From Candidatus Cloacimonadota bacterium (GTDB lineage Bacteria > Cloacimonadota > Cloacimonadia > Cloacimonadales > Cloacimonadaceae): DNA of 8,020 nucleotides. The notes beneath the pieces were generated by a model. It did not search any database. It saw only the letters and a program-made list of their open reading frames with translations, and had not been told where the DNA came from. This document shows, piece after piece, positions 605 through 7,575 of this stretch; the stretch's first letter is position 1; the number at the start of each line of letters is the position of its first letter. The stretch is from positions 1 to 8,020 of the forward strand of contig JAAYQD010000254.1 of assembly GCA_012519465.1 (NCBI GenBank). The letters are read 5' to 3'. A program made the position numbers and the translations under genes.

Positions 605-1051
605 ATGAAAAAGAGTATAGGACGCCTTGTTTCAATCCTTTACAGGAAGAATCAGGTGTATCTGGATATAGCCTTAAAGCCGCTGAATATCACGGCGGCG
701 GAATTGCCCTTCATCGCACGTCTCTTTGCGCGTGATGGTGTTTCTCAAGAGTATCTATCATCTTATCTGTCAATAGATAAGGCGGCCACTGCCAAGGCGG
801 TGAAGTCCTTGGCATTAAAGGGTTACGTGCGCAAAGACAAAAACCCCTCTGATAAGCGGGCAAACCAGATTTATATCACGGAATATGCCCTCAAGCAAAA
901 AGATGAGATTATGAAGAGGCTTCGTGAATGGACGGAGATCTTGACCCAAGGCATTGATAAGGCAGAGGTTGACACGATGCATACCGTTTTGGATAAGATG
1001 GTGAATCGGGTTGAAGACTGGGAAGCGCGCAGGCACGGGGAGGACGCATGA
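605..1051 (+). CDS. MarR-family transcriptional regulator
   Basis: This is a 148-residue protein, the usual length for MarR regulators, which bind palindromic DNA as dimers and release it on binding small, often toxic or phenolic, ligands. An N-terminal helix (MKKSIGRLVSILYRKNQVYL) leads to a winged helix-turn-helix. Residues 46-75 hold the helix-turn-helix (VSQEYLSSYLSIDKAATAKA then VKSLALKGYV). Residues 76-90 form the wing, with the family's D-x-R signature at Asp83-Lys-Arg85. Residues 94-140 are helical and probably dimerise. The stop overlaps the start of the MATE gene as ATGA, so the two are co-transcribed and translationally coupled. This arrangement resembles mepR-mepA in Staphylococcus, where MepR represses its own operon; the palindromes upstream suggest the same here. 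Ribosome-site match before the ATG is weak (GGAA about 9 bases upstream). The effector ligand cannot be inferred. Confidence 0.93.
   Translation: MKKSIGRLVSILYRKNQVYLDIALKPLNITAAELPFIARLFARDGVSQEYLSSYLSIDKAATAKAVKSLALKGYVRKDKNPSDKRANQIYITEYALKQKDEIMKRLREWTEILTQGIDKAEVDTMHTVLDKMVNRVEDWEARRHGEDA
1037..1051 (+). promoter_or_regulatory. Ribosome site and ATGA overlap coupling marR-like and MATE genes
   Basis: GGGGAGGA (1037-1044) lies just before ATG at 1048, inside the last codons of the upstream gene. The upstream stop TGA (1049-1051) overlaps that ATG. This fixes the MATE start and implies reinitiation coupling. Confidence 0.85.
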
Positions 1052-2499
1052 ACGAACTGAATAATCCTCTGGGTATAGAGAAAACCTCCACGCTGTTACG
1101 CAAGTTTTCCATCCCTGCCATCATCGGGATGGTGGTGAGTGCGCTGTATAACGTGGTGGATCGCATCTTCATCAGCAATGCGCCGGATATAGGCGAGCTG
1201 GGTTTGACGGGTATCACCATCGGCTTCCCCATCATGATTTTACAATTGGCGGTGGCGCTCTTGTTTGGCATCGGCGGAGCCACCTTGTTCTCCATCAAAT
1301 GTGGACAAAACAAGCCCAAAGAGGCTGATGAAATCTTGGGCAATACCTTCACGATGTTACTGCTGAGCGGATTGTTGTTCACAGTTCTGGGCATCTCCTT
1401 TCATGCGCCGATACTCAGGATGTTTGGTGCCAGTGAGCAGGCATTGCCATACTCAATGGCATATATGGGGATCATCTTTTATGGTTCCGTGTTCCAGATG
1501 ACCAGCCTGGGACTGAACCATCTGATGCGCGCCAATGGCAAGCCCAATCTGGCGATGATCACGATGTTTATGGGGGCAGGCACCAATATAGTGTTGGATT
1601 ATGTCTTCATCTTCATCTTCAAGATGGGGATGGCAGGTGCGGCGCTGGCTACCATCATTTCACAGGCGGTATCGATGACATGGATACTGGCAAACTTTAT
1701 CAAGAAAGACAATCCTCACCGCATCCAACTGCGCTATATGATGCCCAAATGGGCGCACGTAAGGCGCATCGCCAGCTATGGAACGCCCAGCTTCATGCTG
1801 CAAAGCGTGAATAGCCTGCTGCATTTAATACTCAATACCAAGCTGGCATTCCATGGTCAGGAATTGAGCATCGGAGTGGCGGGGATAGCATACAATGGGG
1901 GAGATTTGGCTGTGGCTGCCATGGGGATAGTGAATAGCGTGCAAACCATTCTGTTGATGCCCATTACCGGTTTGAACCAAGGTGTGCAGCCCATAGTGAG
2001 TTTCAATTTTGGTGCCAAAAAGTATCAGCGGATCAAATCCACGGAGTTTCAGGCGATGACTGCCGCCACGATCATTGTGGTGGTAGGATGGCTGATTACG
2101 CGGCTCTTTTCCTCACAGATAGTCACGCTTTTTAACCCCGATAGGGAACAGGGATTGATGAGTTTTGGCACTTTTGCCGTTTATACTTGGTTTTGGGGCT
2201 TGCCTTTGGTGGGCATGCAGATCTTGGGGGCAAATTTCTTCCAAGCCATCGGGCGTCCCGCAATAGCAATGACACTCACGCTCACGCGGCAGGTGTTGCT
2301 TTTGATCCCTGCCATCCTGGTGTTTTCACGCATCTGGGGGCTGAATGGCATTCTCTATGCGGCTCCCTTTGCCGATATCGTTTCAGCGGCGATTACCGGT
2401 ACCAGTTTCTACTTTGGATTGCGTGGTCTCTTGAGGAAAGGAGAGAAGGAGAGGGAGCTTGCAGCGCAAGCGTTGGGTGCTCAGGCAGCGAGCAGTTGA
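1048..2499 (+). CDS. MATE-family efflux antiporter, MepA-like
   Basis: This 483-residue inner-membrane protein has about twelve hydrophobic segments (roughly 21-42, 55-82, 98-118, 135-155, 168-192, 195-216, 243-263, 285-306, 336-355, 370-395, 405-428 and 433-458), the normal MATE plan of two six-helix halves. It should export organic cations or drugs in exchange for sodium or protons. Family signatures seen are NPLG at 6-9, SALYNVVDRIFI at 31-42, the half-1 motif R161-ANGKPNLAM, LDYVFIFIFKMGMAGAA at 183-199, AYNGGDLAVAAMGI at 281-294, GLNQGVQPIVSFNFGAKKY at 308-326, and QAIGRP at 399-404. The NPLG-type N-terminus and GGDLA segment fit the MepA-like branch better than NorM. A polar Ala/Glu-rich tail follows residue 462. 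Its coupling to a MarR gene supports drug-inducible efflux; the actual substrate is not shown by sequence. Confidence 0.93.
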   Translation: MNELNNPLGIEKTSTLLRKFSIPAIIGMVVSALYNVVDRIFISNAPDIGELGLTGITIGFPIMILQLAVALLFGIGGATLFSIKCGQNKPKEADEILGNTFTMLLLSGLLFTVLGISFHAPILRMFGASEQALPYSMAYMGIIFYGSVFQMTSLGLNHLMRANGKPNLAMITMFMGAGTNIVLDYVFIFIFKMGMAGAALATIISQAVSMTWILANFIKKDNPHRIQLRYMMPKWAHVRRIASYGTPSFMLQSVNSLLHLILNTKLAFHGQELSIGVAGIAYNGGDLAVAAMGIVNSVQTILLMPITGLNQGVQPIVSFNFGAKKYQRIKSTEFQAMTAATIIVVVGWLITRLFSSQIVTLFNPDREQGLMSFGTFAVYTWFWGLPLVGMQILGANFFQAIGRPAIAMTLTLTRQVLLLIPAILVFSRIWGLNGILYAAPFADIVSAAITGTSFYFGLRGLLRKGEKERELAAQALGAQAASS

Positions 2500-2569: not shown

Positions 2570-3181
2570 CTAATTCCAGCTCAGCAAATTCTCCAACTCC
2601 GGAATACGCCCTGCATGCAGGAAGCGTTTGCCGTAGTAACTATTGGGATAGCTGTCTATCACTATCCCGCGGCTGGAGCTATGCATCATCTTAATCTGAC
2701 CGCCTGTGGTGTCTATCACCATGGTCACGTGTCCCACGGTTTTGGATGAAGCCGATCTCCCGGTAAAAAAGAGCAGATCGCCCTTTTGTACATCATTGAT
2801 GGAGATGCGGCTGGTGAAGGATGACATTTGGCGGGAGGTGCGGGGCAGCTTGACGCCTTCCAAAGAGTAGATATAGCCCACAAAGCCGCTGCAATCCATG
2901 ATATCGCCTTTGGGATTGCGGAATTTATAGGGGCGTCCCAGATATTGGCGCCCGTTTTCTATTACTTTATCCACGAGGTTTTCTTTGATGAGAAATGGAT
3001 GACGTTCCCGGATCAGAACCCTGATCAGGTTTTCCACTTCATCATCCACTTCGATGATGGTTGGGTTGGCAAAGGCCGTGGCAACAGAGCTCATGATAAA
3101 AAAGACTATCACCAATACGCTAAAGCGGATGCGCCTCAGCAGGGTCATTGCCGGTAGCGCGTTATATAACTTGTTAATCAT
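2570..3181 (-). CDS. Exported NlpC/P60 cysteine peptidase (peptidoglycan endopeptidase)
   Basis: The protein has 203 residues. Residues 12-38 look like a Sec signal: Arg-rich start (LLRRIRF), hydrophobic core (SVLVIVFFIM), small residues before a likely cleavage after Ala38 (AFA/NP). Residues 39-67 are a short linker. An NlpC/P60 domain fills about 70-195: Cys97 in the family motif D-C-S-G-F, LPRTSRQM at 112-119, KGDLLFF at 133-139, His151 in GHVTMVID, and His167 in MMHSSSRG. These are the expected catalytic Cys, His and third polar residue. Relatives cut peptide stems of peptidoglycan, usually between D-Glu and the diamino acid, in wall growth or turnover. No SH3 or LysM targeting domain is visible, so it is a minimal form. 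The start is uncertain: neither Met1 nor Met12 has a good ribosome site; Met12 would give a more typical signal-peptide length. The gene begins 81 bases after the importer operon, with no clear terminator between them, so read-through is possible. Confidence 0.9.
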   Translation of the reverse strand: MINKLYNALPAMTLLRRIRFSVLVIVFFIMSSVATAFANPTIIEVDDEVENLIRVLIRERHPFLIKENLVDKVIENGRQYLGRPYKFRNPKGDIMDCSGFVGYIYSLEGVKLPRTSRQMSSFTSRISINDVQKGDLLFFTGRSASSKTVGHVTMVIDTTGGQIKMMHSSSRGIVIDSYPNSYYGKRFLHAGRIPELENLLSWN

Positions 3182-3262: not shown

Positions 3263-5131
3263 CTACTTCTCCATGGGAACCACAATTCCTTTAATGATAA
3301 TGTTTTGGAAGAATACGAATACCGCCAGAGTGGGAATGGCAGCTATCACCAAAGCGGCATATCCCACGCTCACGCTGGCGCGTTGCATCAGGTTGTAAAT
3401 ATGCACCATGAGCGTCCACATGGATTGATCCTGACACACGATGAAGGCAAAGAGGAAATTGCGGTAGGCGGCGTTGAATGCACCCAGGGCAATCACAGCC
3501 AGGATGGGTTTGGAGAGCCAGAGGGTGAATTGCCAGAAGAGGCGAAATTCTCCCGCTCCATCCAGGGAGGCGCTCTCGTATATCTCCCGCGGGAGGCTAT
3601 CAAAAAAGCCCTTCAACAGAAAGATGAAATAACCATCTGCCGCGGCTGGCAGCACCAGCGCCCAGAAGGTATTGAGCAGGTTCAGTTTCTTCAGCATCAG
3701 GAAATTGGGAATGCCCATCACCATCGCTGGAAACGCCATGGTGAGCATGAACAGCATGATAAATTGATAGCTAAAACGCGGTTTGAAGCGGCTGAGCGCA
3801 TAGGCGGCCAGGGGATTCACCGTGATTGCCATCAGGATGGAAAGCAATACGTAGATGCCGGTATTGCGCAGGGAGCGCGCATCACTTAGCATCTGATCCA
3901 ACGCCATCTTATAGTTGCGGCTGATGAATTCCCAGCGGATGGCGCTTTTGCGCTCCTTGAAGCTATAATAATCCTGTTCCACTGTGGGGAAGGCGATCTC
4001 CTGCCAATCTAAGAGCTTGATCTGCCATGCATCCTCCAGCTGGGAGAGGCTGTGGTACTTATCCTCCAGCCAGTGGCGCCAATCCCATGCCAGGCTGCTG
4101 ATCCTGATATGCTCCGGCTGTGCCTGGTTTTGCACAAAGAAGCTGAGATCCTCCTGTACCACACCTCCGTCTGGCACTCGGTCTGGAATGGTGATATCGG
4201 CAAAAGAGCTGTAGGTAGCGTTCCACGTCTGATTGAGCAGCGTGATATTGTCGTATTTATCCCTCAGGCTGGCCTGGAATGCCGGCATCGCGCTGGCATC
4301 AATGCTGAGGTGGTTGATATTGATGATTTCCCGGGCATAGCGCAGCCAGGGTTCCCGCAGGTGATGCCCCTGGGGCGGACAGCTCTCTGGCAGCTGCAAT
4401 TGGTTCCAGGAGGTATAATTGCTGCCGTGTTCCGCGTTGTATTTATCCAAATCCCCACCATAAGCGGGGATGATTTCACTATTCACAAAGGCGCCATCTG
4501 GATTTACAAACAGCTTTTGATACAAAGGAACCGCCTGCTTGAACTCTCTGAAGCGCCCCAGATAGCCTTCCTGGGAGCTGGCAAACAGCCGGCGCATAAT
4601 CTCCTTTTCTTCCACCACTATTTCTTCCCAGCTCACCGCTCCCGTGCCATAGCGCTTGTTAAATTCCACCAGAGAGTTGGAATTCTCATCTCTCAGCATC
4701 TTGCGGTATTGCCGCTGTGCCAGGGGATAGACGCCTCTGCCGTAGTGTTCTGCCACATAATAGTGATACACGCCATAATCCGCCGTTTTGATGAATTCCA
4801 CCCAATCCTGATAGACAGCCGGATTGGGCTGTGCCGGAAGTGTCACCTCAGAAAAGGAAATCCAGCTCCCGGGATAGTTGTCCATCAGGCGGCTGCTTTC
4901 CTCGTTATACCTGCTTTCCAGATACTTTTGATAGAGGGGTTCATCTTGAAAGAGATAGGGCGGGATCAGCTCCATGCGGGTGCCATCCACTCCACTTTTG
5001 ATGGAGGAAGACAGCATCAGGGCAAAAGGATAAAGCATGGTGAGTGAGCCCAAAATCAAGAGCAGGTGCATGCTGAGATTGAGGATGCGGGTCTTGGGAT
5101 CGCGGCGCGCCACTTTGCCGATTATGCTCAC
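3263..5131 (-). CDS. MalG-type ABC sugar permease with a large repeat-containing periplasmic insert
   Basis: A 622-residue protein, more than twice the usual 270-300 of MalG-type permeases. Residues 21-43 are the first membrane helix (ending MLYPFALMLSSS). Residues about 44-420 are a hydrophilic, aromatic-rich insert. The rest (about 424-622) has five more helices. The ATPase-contacting EAA loop reads EIYESASLDGAGEFRLFWQF from residue 516, matching the family pattern E-A-A-x-x-D-G-A. In this family the loop after helix 1 faces outward, so the insert should be extracytoplasmic. I chose the GTG at 5131, which overlaps the upstream stop as GTGA and follows GGGAGGA; the longer ORF from an ATG at 5224 lies inside the upstream gene and adds 31 Gly/Gln/His-rich residues unlike a permease N-terminus. 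It should pair with the fused permease upstream. The nearest precedent for a big permease loop is the P2 loop of MalF, but that is in the partner subunit and at another position. Confidence 0.9.
   Translation of the reverse strand: MSIIGKVARRDPKTRILNLSMHLLLILGSLTMLYPFALMLSSSIKSGVDGTRMELIPPYLFQDEPLYQKYLESRYNEESSRLMDNYPGSWISFSEVTLPAQPNPAVYQDWVEFIKTADYGVYHYYVAEHYGRGVYPLAQRQYRKMLRDENSNSLVEFNKRYGTGAVSWEEIVVEEKEIMRRLFASSQEGYLGRFREFKQAVPLYQKLFVNPDGAFVNSEIIPAYGGDLDKYNAEHGSNYTSWNQLQLPESCPPQGHHLREPWLRYAREIININHLSIDASAMPAFQASLRDKYDNITLLNQTWNATYSSFADITIPDRVPDGGVVQEDLSFFVQNQAQPEHIRISSLAWDWRHWLEDKYHSLSQLEDAWQIKLLDWQEIAFPTVEQDYYSFKERKSAIRWEFISRNYKMALDQMLSDARSLRNTGIYVLLSILMAITVNPLAAYALSRFKPRFSYQFIMLFMLTMAFPAMVMGIPNFLMLKKLNLLNTFWALVLPAAADGYFIFLLKGFFDSLPREIYESASLDGAGEFRLFWQFTLWLSKPILAVIALGAFNAAYRNFLFAFIVCQDQSMWTLMVHIYNLMQRASVSVGYAALVIAAIPTLAVFVFFQNIIIKGIVVPMEK
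3986..4858 (-). repeat. Five degenerate 66-75-residue protein repeats in the permease insert
   Basis: Within the insert of the MalG-type permease, an eight-residue signature recurs: SFSEVTLP (4858-4835), SWEEIVVE (4633-4610), SWNQLQLP (4411-4388), SFADITIP (4207-4184) and DWQEIAFP (4009-3986). Distances between successive copies are 75, 74, 68 and 66 residues. Several copies are preceded by a matching helix-like stretch: YLESRYNEES, FNKRYGTG, YNAEHGSN, LRDKYDNITLLNQTW and LEDKYHSLSQLEDAW. After the signature come aromatic-rich segments such as WVEFIK, WLRYAR and FFVQNQ. I infer repeated small domains. The K-Y-x-x-x-x-x-L-N-x-x-W pattern followed by S-[FW] recalls a segment of some GH42-type beta-galactosidases, where it lies near the sugar-binding barrel. 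That likeness is from memory and untested. Confidence 0.65.
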
Positions 5132-5141
5132 AAATCCTCCC
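5128..5141 (-). promoter_or_regulatory. Ribosome site and GTGA overlap fixing the second permease start
   Basis: On the minus strand GGGAGGA (5141-5135) precedes GTG (5131-5129), which overlaps the stop TGA (5130-5128) of the upstream gene. The strong site and the 4-base overlap decide the start and imply translational coupling, giving matched amounts of the two permease halves. Confidence 0.8.
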
Positions 5142-7575
5142 TGCCCACGGCCCTGAATTCCATGCGTGAGATGTGCTTGATCTGCAGCACGGTAAAGCCC
5201 ATCAACAGCAGACTCAGCATCCACGCCATGGTGGTTGCCAAGCCGAATTTCAGATAGAGATAGGCTTTTTCAAAGATGAGAAGATCTGCCACGCGCGTAG
5301 CCTCGTTCGGTCCGCCAAAGGTCATCACCAGGATGAAATCGCTGGATTGGGCAGCCACGATGAAGGCGGCTATCAGCTGGATGATGATAAGTGCCCTTAG
5401 GCTGGGGAAAACGATGTGGCGCAGCTTTTCCCCAAATCCGGCACCGTCTATATCCGCCGCCTCATACAGCTCGTTGGGGATGTTTTTCAAAGCTGCCAGA
5501 TAGATGAGGGAGCCGGGCCCCATCCCTGCCCAGATTCCGGGCAATACCACACACAGCATGGCGAGGCTTTCATCGCGTATCCATTGGCTCTTGGGCAAGC
5601 CCACGGCGGTGAGCAGTTGGTTCAAAGCTCCTGCATCTCCGGGAGCATAAAGCAGCTTCCACAAGTAAATTACGATCACGCCGCTAATCACCGCAGGCAG
5701 ATAAAAGATCACCCGATAGATGAGCTTGGCGTGGGAAACCTCCTGCAGCATGATGGCGAGGATGATGGGCGGGAAAAAGCCCAGGCCCAGGGAGAGCGCC
5801 ATATAGTATAGGGTTTTGCCCACGGATGCCCACCAGCTGGGATCAAACAGCACTTCCGCTAAGTTGCCAAAGCCCACCCAGGGGCTGGCTCCCACCAGCT
5901 TATAATCCTGAGCCGCCATCACGGAACCGGATATCAGCGGGATGTATTTCCACATCACGATGCTGATCACGGCAGGCGCCAAAAGCAGGCTTATCCAAAA
6001 GAGGCGCTTCTTGCCGCCTGTGGATGAGGGCTTGGTTTGGGGCGAGAGTATCTTCCACACCCGCCACAGGGTGAGGATGAAGGCAAAGAGGATGAGAGCG
6101 GCGATCACGGCTGCCAGCCTCTCCCGTTTTAGCCTGATGTTATCCGGCAGCACGCCAATCATCTCCTGATTGGTGCGGTCTTGCGCGGCTTGCAGCACCT
6201 TCATGATGGCTTTGGCGCGCACTGCGGGGTCTTTGCCTAATTTGCCCTGCCTATCCAGCTTGATCAATTCATCAAGCGGATAGGTCATAAATTCATATAC
6301 TTTCTGACAGTTATCGCCATAAGGCTCCGGCTTGCCCTCGCGCATGGCGGTCTCAAAGGTCTGCAGCCAGCCCTCAGGCGCATAGCGCAGGTATTCCTCA
6401 TAGCCATAACGCTTTAGGAACACGGGATTCTGCAATTTGCCATAGCCGCTTTCCACCATCACCTTGAGGCGTATCTGCCGGGCTTCCTCACTGTCATAAA
6501 ACTTGATATATTCCCAGGCGGCTTCCCTCACCAAAGCGGGGTCTCTATCCCCCAGCCCGGCGTTATTGCTGATGCCCGCACCGCTAAAGATGCCCATCAT
6601 GCGGCAATTGATCTCGCTGCCGCCCTTGCCGGAGGGTCCTGTGGGACTGGGCGCAAAGCCATAGAGATTGGGATCATATCGCCCGCCCATATTCTGCTGG
6701 GAAAGATAATCGTTGCGCATGGCAATCTTGCCTTCCGACCACAGGTAGCCCCAATCCCCCTCCCGCATGGCATAGCCGTCCTGGGGGCGTCCATTGGCAT
6801 CCGTCCAGGGCGTGTTCAAAAGTGCCAGATAGTATTCAATCGCCTGCACTCCCGCCTCACTGGCAAAGCTGGCAAGCCACACCTTCCTCTCTGCGTCCCA
6901 CACCACGGCATCCCCGCCGGCAGCCCACAACAGCGGCAGCCAGTCATAAGCCGCCTGCGGACCAGACGCCAACACGGTACCATAGCTGTTGGAAGCAGGA
7001 TCGCTGAGCCTTGCCGCATATTGCAGGAATTCCTCCCAATCCTGGGGAGCCTTGTTGGGATCCAGTCCCGCTCGCTTGAATACATCCTTGCGATACATCA
7101 GTACACGCACCAGGGTCTCATAGGGCAACATCCAGATGCGTTCTTCTTTCTCCCCCTTCAAACTGCGCTTGATCACCTGCCACACTGGCTTTTCCACCCG
7201 CAAATCCATCAATTCCGGCTTCTCGCGGGCAATGAATTCATCCAAGGGGTAGAGGAAGTTGTTTTGGATATAAGTATCACTCTGTCTAAAGTTTACATAA
7301 AGGATATCAGGCGCCACTCCGCCGGCTATGGCCATCAAGGGACCTGCATCCAGATCCATATTTTCGATGCGGATACCGGAAAATGCCCGCAGCTCGATAT
7401 GGGGAAACCTTTGCCTAAATGCCTGCACCACCGCGGCATTAGCCTTGGAATTGGCGTCTGTGGCACGCGGATCCGGCAGTTCAAAAACCTTGAGCACAAT
7501 CGGCTCACGCCGCACTGCCGGCAAGCTGCCACACAGTGCCGCCATCATCAGAAGAATAAAGATAAATCTACGCAT
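5128..7575 (-). CDS. Fused solute-binding protein and MalF-type ABC permease
   Basis: The 815-residue protein joins two importer parts normally made separately. Residues 1-20 are a signal-like segment (RRFIFILLMMAAL). About 26-470 is a family-1 extracellular solute-binding domain: FRQRFPHIEL at 53-62, GGVAPDILYV at 85-94, YPLDEFI at 109-115, YRKDVFKRAGLDPNKAPQDW at 161-180, WAAGGD at 217-222 and AAWEYIKFYDSEEA at 352-365. A helix at 487-507 and a short Ser/Thr/Lys linker lead into the permease, with six further helices between about 525 and 800. Its EAA loop, ELYEAADIDGAGFGEKLRHI from residue 702 then VFP, is canonical for ATPase docking. Cys15 lacks a proper lipobox, and a lipid anchor would be redundant given the membrane domain. 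It likely imports a carbohydrate; the ligand is unknown. It is first in the operon with the repeat-bearing permease; no ATPase gene is nearby. The ribosome site before ATG 7575 is weak (GGCGGAT, about 7 bases away). Confidence 0.93.
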   Translation of the reverse strand: MRRFIFILLMMAALCGSLPAVRREPIVLKVFELPDPRATDANSKANAAVVQAFRQRFPHIELRAFSGIRIENMDLDAGPLMAIAGGVAPDILYVNFRQSDTYIQNNFLYPLDEFIAREKPELMDLRVEKPVWQVIKRSLKGEKEERIWMLPYETLVRVLMYRKDVFKRAGLDPNKAPQDWEEFLQYAARLSDPASNSYGTVLASGPQAAYDWLPLLWAAGGDAVVWDAERKVWLASFASEAGVQAIEYYLALLNTPWTDANGRPQDGYAMREGDWGYLWSEGKIAMRNDYLSQQNMGGRYDPNLYGFAPSPTGPSGKGGSEINCRMMGIFSGAGISNNAGLGDRDPALVREAAWEYIKFYDSEEARQIRLKVMVESGYGKLQNPVFLKRYGYEEYLRYAPEGWLQTFETAMREGKPEPYGDNCQKVYEFMTYPLDELIKLDRQGKLGKDPAVRAKAIMKVLQAAQDRTNQEMIGVLPDNIRLKRERLAAVIAALILFAFILTLWRVWKILSPQTKPSSTGGKKRLFWISLLLAPAVISIVMWKYIPLISGSVMAAQDYKLVGASPWVGFGNLAEVLFDPSWWASVGKTLYYMALSLGLGFFPPIILAIMLQEVSHAKLIYRVIFYLPAVISGVIVIYLWKLLYAPGDAGALNQLLTAVGLPKSQWIRDESLAMLCVVLPGIWAGMGPGSLIYLAALKNIPNELYEAADIDGAGFGEKLRHIVFPSLRALIIIQLIAAFIVAAQSSDFILVMTFGGPNEATRVADLLIFEKAYLYLKFGLATTMAWMLSLLLMGFTVLQIKHISRMEFRAVGREDL

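What the first reader, a model, noticed from the sequence alone, without database searches (positions are those of the whole stretch)
3986..4999. Sugar-importer permease carrying a five-repeat extracytoplasmic module after helix 1
Seen: about 375 hydrophilic residues separate the first and second membrane helices of a MalG-type permease, and a signature [SD][FW]xx[IVL]x[hydrophobic][PE] recurs five times at intervals of 75, 74, 68 and 66 residues. Known: MalG-type permeases are about 280 residues with a short outward loop here; the known large loop (P2 of MalF) lies in the partner and touches the binding protein. Inference: this is a separate tandem-domain module that may bind glycan, guide the tethered binding protein or contact the cell wall. 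The resemblance of the unit to a segment of GH42-type enzymes hints at a carbohydrate-binding origin, without evidence of catalysis.
Basis: partly seen in the sequence, partly recalled or inferred. Interest (0 to 1): 0.7.

Follow-up and report, generated by a model that had tools for sequence, protein, structure and literature searches.

The report
Sugar importer with enzyme-derived repeat arm
A bacterial sugar-importer subunit carries, in a loop predicted to lie outside the membrane, five tandem copies of a roughly 70-residue unit that shares sequence with one piece of GH42-type sugar-cutting enzymes, and this array likely holds the permease-tethered binding protein over the channel during uptake of probably mannose-containing oligosaccharides.

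Summary
Observation confirmed. Profile comparison, a unit HMM and a confident model of the module alone (pLDDT 91.7, pTM 0.88) support five units, R1 most weakly. The unit is homologous to one segment of GH42/GH14/GH50/GH167 enzymes, just after the acid/base residue; no unit keeps a conserved glutamate there (R1 has an Asp). Searches gave 770 and 2171 hits, with names from Cloacimonadota and Armatimonadota; fetched loci add Delongbacteria and Firestonebacteria. Five- and seven-unit forms exist. A binding-protein-MalF fusion lies next upstream in 31 of 33 loci; all 44 of 124 phylum genomes with the permease have the fusion (46 do). GH38 and GH20 genes follow in 20 of 33 loci, GH130 in 16 of those; the window's genome has the set on another contig. 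Best reading: an importer of N-glycan-type oligosaccharides whose MalG loop carries a glycosidase-derived repeat scaffold that likely docks the tethered binding protein. Repeats, kinship and neighbours are shown; docking and substrate are inferred. New variant of a known kind.

The parts
3263..5131 (-). MalG/UgpE-type permease with repeat loop, 622 aa, GTG start
   Evidence: PF00528 at residues 442-616, PF02449 at 280-329
5135..5141 (-). Shine-Dalgarno-like GGGAGGA before the GTG start
   Evidence: inspection
5006..5086 (-). transmembrane helix 1 (residues 16-42)
   Evidence: hydropathy; helix 12-44
4754..4945 (-). repeat unit R1 (residues 63-126)
4508..4753 (-). repeat unit R2 (residues 127-208)
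4301..4507 (-). repeat unit R3 (residues 209-277)
4100..4300 (-). repeat unit R4 (residues 278-344), best GH42 match
3941..4099 (-). repeat unit R5 (residues 345-397)
3266..3862 (-). remaining membrane domain (residues 424-622)
3506..3577 (-). EAA-type coupling loop (residues 519-542)
   Evidence: inspection; motif recalled
5128..7575 (-). binding protein fused to MalF-type permease, 815 aa; stop overlaps the MalG start (GTGA)
   Evidence: PF01547 at 80-366, PF00528 at 619-795
6133..7506 (-). solute-binding domain of the fusion (residues 24-481, bounded by the two hydrophobic helices)
6040..6132 (-). hydrophobic helix that tethers the binding domain (residues 482-512)
   Evidence: hydropathy

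Best explanation
This MalG-type permease carries five tandem copies of a GH42-related unit between its helices 1 and 2, and the array is predicted to stand outside the membrane as a rigid helical scaffold that likely docks the binding protein tethered to the partner permease, in an importer probably used for N-glycan-type manno-oligosaccharides. Shown by sequence: the units, their homology to one segment of GH42/GH14/GH50/GH167 enzymes, the absence of a whole catalytic domain, the binding-protein-MalF fusion next door, and GH38/GH20/GH130 genes beside the operon in 20 of 33 fetched relatives. Predicted: the fold of the module and its location outside. Inferred: that the array does here what the P2 loop of MalF does in E. 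coli, that units 1-2 form the contact region, that the one OB_MalK-type ATPase found in the genome drives the importer, and that the imported oligosaccharide is trimmed in the cytoplasm by GH38 and GH20 and its beta-mannosyl core cleaved by GH130.
For: Repeats: and in 120 distant relatives. GH kinship: Pfam (E 1.1e-6; 1.4e-13 in L011); PDB profile; all 40 rows shown are glycosidases or a glucosyltransferase, each aligned within module residues 228-298 (R4). Tethered partner: fusion next upstream in 31 of 33 loci, the other two contigs beginning inside MalG. Of 124 phylum genomes the repeat permease is in 44 and the fusion, full or partial, in 46, all 44 shared; the two extra are G009 (fusion match cut at residue 504) and G063 (only a C-terminal piece of the permease). 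At least eight pairs of hits share the same longest-contig length (by eye), which suggests co-location in distant lineages. Conservation (mean entropy, 42 relatives): R2 0.84, R1 1.15, R3 1.54, R4 1.58, R5 1.90 bits; membrane domain 0.23. Substrate: GH38 then GH20 after MalG in 20 of 33 loci, GH130 in 16 of those 20 (tblastn; Pfam on samples); GH38-GH20-GH130-CBM9 in the same order on contig C240 of the own genome; GH130 at E<=1e-40 in 37 of the 44 genomes with the permease and 3 of the other 80. GH130 is nearest TM1225 and UHGB_MP, GH38 nearest Ams1. One OB_MalK match in the genome; a MalK gene next to the fusion in 3 of 33 loci.
Confidence: 0.47

Rival explanations
1. The array is a glycan-binding arm: the GH-derived units, or a groove along them, likely hold an oligosaccharide and pass it to the binding protein.
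For: GH kinship; W+Y+F make up 14.7% of the module; tandem copies would give avidity; glycosidase genes beside the operon; 6ptm, a GH42 enzyme, lacks the Trp182 loop as the units do; Asp49 in R1.
Against: No conserved Glu at the acid/base place in any unit and no acidic residue there in R3 or R4; the five-residue loop present in 1kwg and 9ta3 is absent; R4-R5, which are most like GH42, are more variable than R1-R2.
Confidence: 0.22
2. The array is a spacer or anchor that likely contacts peptidoglycan or an outer-membrane partner and lines the importer up with an uptake pore.
For: Confident extended run of units in the model; unit number differs between five and seven forms, as a ruler might; a CBM9 protein with a signal-like N-terminus lies in the gene set; an NlpC/P60 gene follows in the window.
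Against: Of 33 loci, NlpC/P60 was found next to MalG only in L009, 97% identical to the window (L010 holds only 417 bases there); Pfam reported no wall-binding family in the permease.
Confidence: 0.15
3. The loop is a decayed GH42 enzyme fused into the permease, with no present role.
For: Some records call relatives beta-galactosidase.
Against: The best of two Pfam stretches covers only GH42 positions 149-203 of 376, while profiles show repeated units; invariant residues lie in the module, and it folds confidently in prediction.
Confidence: 0.05
4. Substrate alternative (compatible with any role of the array): the importer takes up another sugar, and the GH38/GH20 link is regional.
For: In L011-L013 the glycosidase set is absent nearby and a pyrimidine nucleoside phosphorylase gene lies upstream; GH130 homologues also act on plant mannan oligosaccharides (names); L039 has other putative glycosidases.
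Against: The own genome keeps the four-gene set on another contig; GH38 plus GH20 would not be needed for plain beta-mannan (inference).
Confidence: 0.3

Closest known systems
E. coli maltose importer MalFGK2-MalE (MalG)
   Same: PF00528 membrane domain, EAA-type loop, MalF-type partner, family-1 binding protein, a MalK-type ATPase in the genome
   Different: MalG has no large outer domain and the large loop P2 is in MalF (recalled; P2 around MalE in passages of PMC8134467). Here the loop is in the MalG-type subunit after helix 1, helical and repetitive, and the binding protein is fused to MalF.
GH42 enzymes (6ptm, 1kwg, 5dfa) and related GH14, GH50 and GH167 enzymes
   Same: The unit is homologous to the segment after the acid/base strand
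   Different: No whole barrel and no conserved acid/base Glu; copies in a row inside a permease
NgtS / ABC-NG N-glycan transporter of Streptococcus pneumoniae (PMC5215778, outline and abstract seen)
   Same: ABC import of N-glycan fragments is the function proposed here
   Different: The abstract mentions neither a repeat module nor a fused binding domain; no NgtS entry was recognised among the 21 PDB hits of our fusion at E<=1e-4
OpuA-type importers with fused binding domains (PMC11065425, search listing only)
   Same: Binding domains joined to the transporter (fusion recalled)
   Different: Glycine betaine importer; not a sugar importer with a repeat array

Membership tests
MalG/UgpE-type ABC sugar permease (PF00528) | BPD_transp_1 membrane domain above cut-off | tested here: met
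   40.7 vs 26.4 bits
MalG/UgpE-type ABC sugar permease (PF00528) | EAA-type coupling loop with the conserved DGA | tested here: met
   residues 519-542, inspection; motif recalled
MalG/UgpE-type ABC sugar permease (PF00528) | partner permease and binding protein in the operon | tested here: met
   fusion overlapping by GTGA; next upstream in 31 of 33 loci
MalG/UgpE-type ABC sugar permease (PF00528) | dedicated MalK ATPase | tested here: inconclusive
   one OB_MalK match in the genome, on another contig; linked in 3 of 33 loci
Named equivalogs MalG or UgpE | NCBIfam cut-off | tested here: not met
   58.3 of 261 and 73.7 of 297 bits
GH42 glycoside hydrolase | whole catalytic domain (376 positions) | tested here: not met
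   best stretch covers positions 149-203
GH42 glycoside hydrolase | acid/base glutamate | tested here: not met
   no unit has a conserved Glu at the offset; R1 has Asp49, R5 Glu in 38 of 67 rows one position away, R3 and R4 no acidic majority; Glu141 and its number are recalled
GH42 glycoside hydrolase | nucleophile glutamate | tested here: not met
   its region lies outside the matched stretches (position recalled)
MalF P2-type docking loop | large outer loop in MalF itself | tested here: not met
   the loop is in the MalG-type partner after helix 1
MalF P2-type docking loop | contact with the binding protein | not testable with these tools
   no complex prediction available
N-glycan importer (NgtS-like function) | linked N-glycan enzymes | tested here: met
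   GH38 and GH20 in 20 of 33 loci, GH130 in 16 of these; not linked in the window itself, where the set is on another contig
N-glycan importer (NgtS-like function) | binding domain binds N-glycan fragments | not testable with these tools
   needs a binding assay

The most novel reading that the evidence does not exclude
A non-catalytic piece of a glycosidase barrel was multiplied in tandem and built into a MalG loop to make a modular arm that grips a covalently tethered binding protein; changing the number of units (five or seven) tunes its reach. This would be a new way for ABC importers to hold their binding protein, used by little-known anaerobes to scavenge N-glycans.
Probability: 0.33. 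Interest if true: 0.75.

Novelty: new variant of a known kind. Interest (0 to 1): 0.58.

Why it matters
In the maltose system the large outer loop near the binding protein sits in MalF. A broad family that instead places a glycosidase-derived repeat array in the MalG-type subunit, next to a binding-protein-MalF fusion in every locus where the upstream side could be seen (31 of 31), offers a natural test of how such importers position their binding protein. It also gives a candidate substrate for transporters of Cloacimonadota and corrects records that name some of these permeases beta-galactosidase.

Tried and rejected
Whole GH42 fusion: rejected, since the best match covers positions 149-203 only. 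Repeats by chance: rejected by profile, HMM and model. NlpC/P60 as part of the system: rejected; among 33 loci found beside MalG only in L009. Other uses of the unit in the own genome: only this protein plus one weak hit at C288 (E 0.16). Unit HMM on controls (the fusion, own GH38 and GH20, the MalG-type protein of contig C368, and reversed sequences): nothing at E<1; in L032 it found five of the expected seven. Full-length model: most of the membrane domain after residue 438 is under pLDDT 50, so nothing is drawn from that part. Foldseek gave no significant whole-module match and the VIA-align rows cover one unit, so whether the whole array has a relative in the PDB stays open. Literature: nine searches listed no paper whose shown title or abstract start describes such a permease; this is limited to the held library, those words and the listed rows. 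Read: passages of PMC8134467 and PMC10154615, outline and abstract of PMC5215778; all others as listings only. Tree of residues 398-622 of 67 permeases (of 120 listed, of 770 hits): at least two changes between five- and seven-unit forms; labels were set by length (under 640 aa five, otherwise seven), while HMM hits in the 30 long proteins tested were six or seven.

Changes made on checking: the Trp182-loop argument was weakened (6ptm lacks the loop too) and Asp49 in R1 is now told, so docking went from 0.50 to 0.47, the glycan arm from 0.20 to 0.22 and the novel case from 0.35 to 0.33.

Full report
What was checked. The window holds, on the minus strand, a fused binding-protein-MalF gene (7575-5128, 815 aa) and, overlapping it by GTGA, a 622-aa MalG-type permease (5131-3263) with a Shine-Dalgarno-like GGGAGGA. 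Pfam finds BPD_transp_1 at residues 442-616 of the permease and, above its cut-off, Glyco_hydro_42 with the best stretch at 280-329. NCBIfam scores it far below the MalG and UgpE equivalog cut-offs. Hydropathy puts helix 1 at 16-42 and the next at 424-447, so about 380 residues lie between. The positively charged N-terminus puts this loop outside (inference by the positive-inside rule). The other seven PF00528 frames found outside this operon in the genome are 279-332 aa.

The repeats. Because it was drawn from this sequence, I tested the units without it. An alignment of 42 relatives (of 120 listed, of 770 hits) was cut into five segments and compared as profiles: 98.5% (R4/R5), 96.5% (R3/R4 and R3/R5), 89.6% (R2/R3), 76% (R1/R4), 70% (R2/R4) and 55% (R2/R5); R1/R5, R1/R3 and R1/R2 gave 10, 6 and 0.1%. 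Every pair with one of two membrane-domain controls was below 2%. R1 is thus joined to the set mainly through R4. An HMM of the units from 14 of the 42 sequences finds five units in the window protein and six or seven hits at E<0.5 in each of 30 longer relatives, the sixth unit often degenerate; the best of 31 reversed sequences had E 1.3. In the 120 listed relatives of a Firestonebacteria member, 71 show five units, 37 four, 11 three and 1 two at E<0.01, and 0 of 120 reversed sequences show any.

Structure. Modelled whole, the module has pLDDT about 90 but most of the membrane domain is under 50. Modelled alone with 30 sequences it reaches pLDDT 91.7 and pTM 0.88. R1-R4 read helix, helix, short helical turn, helix, short strand; R5 runs into the helix before membrane helix 2. 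The units were not superposed.

Distribution. The window protein gave 770 hits and a 36%-identical Firestonebacteria protein 2171; both searches scored only about 8000 candidates and list 120, and hits beyond those listed were not checked for units. Names include Cloacimonadota and Armatimonadota; fetched loci add Delongbacteria and Firestonebacteria. Of 124 genomes of the phylum, 44 hold the repeat permease (best E 8e-103 or better); G063 has only a C-terminal piece and was not counted. The fusion, full or partial, is in 46, including all 44. Proteins with both binding-protein and permease domains also bear names from Armatimonadetes, Firestonebacteria, Phycisphaeraceae, Tepidisphaeraceae and NPL-UPA2 (their MalG neighbours were not seen). 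Five- and seven-unit forms change at least twice on a tree of the membrane domain.

Context and substrate. Of 33 loci, 31 have the fusion next upstream; the other two begin inside MalG. In 20 loci (L014-L033) a GH38 alpha-mannosidase gene follows MalG and a GH20 gene follows that; GH130 follows in 16 of the 20 (the contigs of L020-L022 end first, L026 shows none within reach). L034 and L040 have GH38 within 3.3 kb. L011-L013, L035-L037, L039 and L041 show none of these; L038 has CBM9 and GH130 upstream but no GH38; L009 and L010 hold under 600 bases downstream (tblastn; Pfam on samples from five of these loci). In L017 the GH38, GH20 and GH130 proteins begin without a hydrophobic stretch and the CBM9 protein with one (inspection), so the sugar is likely taken up whole and degraded inside. 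The window's genome keeps GH38-GH20-GH130-CBM9 in the same order on contig C240. GH130 at E<=1e-40 is in 37 of 44 genomes with the permease and 3 of 80 without (Fisher p 6e-21, not corrected for ancestry). GH130 is nearest TM1225 and UHGB_MP and GH38 nearest Ams1. GH38 and GH130 act on the N-glycan core (PMC10154615, passages), and ABC import of N-glycan fragments is known in Streptococcus pneumoniae (PMC5215778, abstract). In Delongbacteria L038, CBM9, GH130 and MalK genes precede the fusion.

Mechanism. The pairing of the module with a covalently tethered binding protein, the higher conservation of R1-R2 than R5 and the lack of a working active site argue for a protein-contact scaffold. In simulations of the maltose system the P2 loop of MalF moves as a rigid body around MalE (PMC8134467, passages). 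I commit to a docking scaffold at 0.47, with a glycan arm (0.22) and a spacer or anchor (0.15) as rivals. The substrate is a separate question; another sugar remains possible (0.3).

Verdict. Real, conserved, and a new variant of a known transporter type; the array's job is the open question.

Noticed in passing
window 605-2499 (+): MarR-like regulator ORF (by inspection, no family call) overlapping a MatE-family efflux gene, convergent with the transporter operon.
   Followed up: no
window 2570-3181 (-): NlpC/P60 protein, 81 nt downstream of MalG on the same strand; found next to MalG in only one of 33 fetched loci (L009).
   Followed up: partly
L011 4197-5552; also L012 and L013: Pyrimidine nucleoside phosphorylase gene directly upstream of the fusion in three loci; meaning unknown.
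   Followed up: partly
L019 6025-8001: The fusion seems to lack residues 434-647, including the tether helix (659-aa frame); the same pattern appears in G036. Deletion or assembly fault.
   Followed up: no
L039 50-4722: Two putative glycosidase genes (GHL15 and GHL6 families) upstream of a seven-unit member, suggesting other sugars for some members.
   Followed up: no
L038 2725-5560: Cluster CBM9 - GH130 - MalK directly before the fusion in a Delongbacteria locus, giving a linked ATPase.
   Followed up: partly
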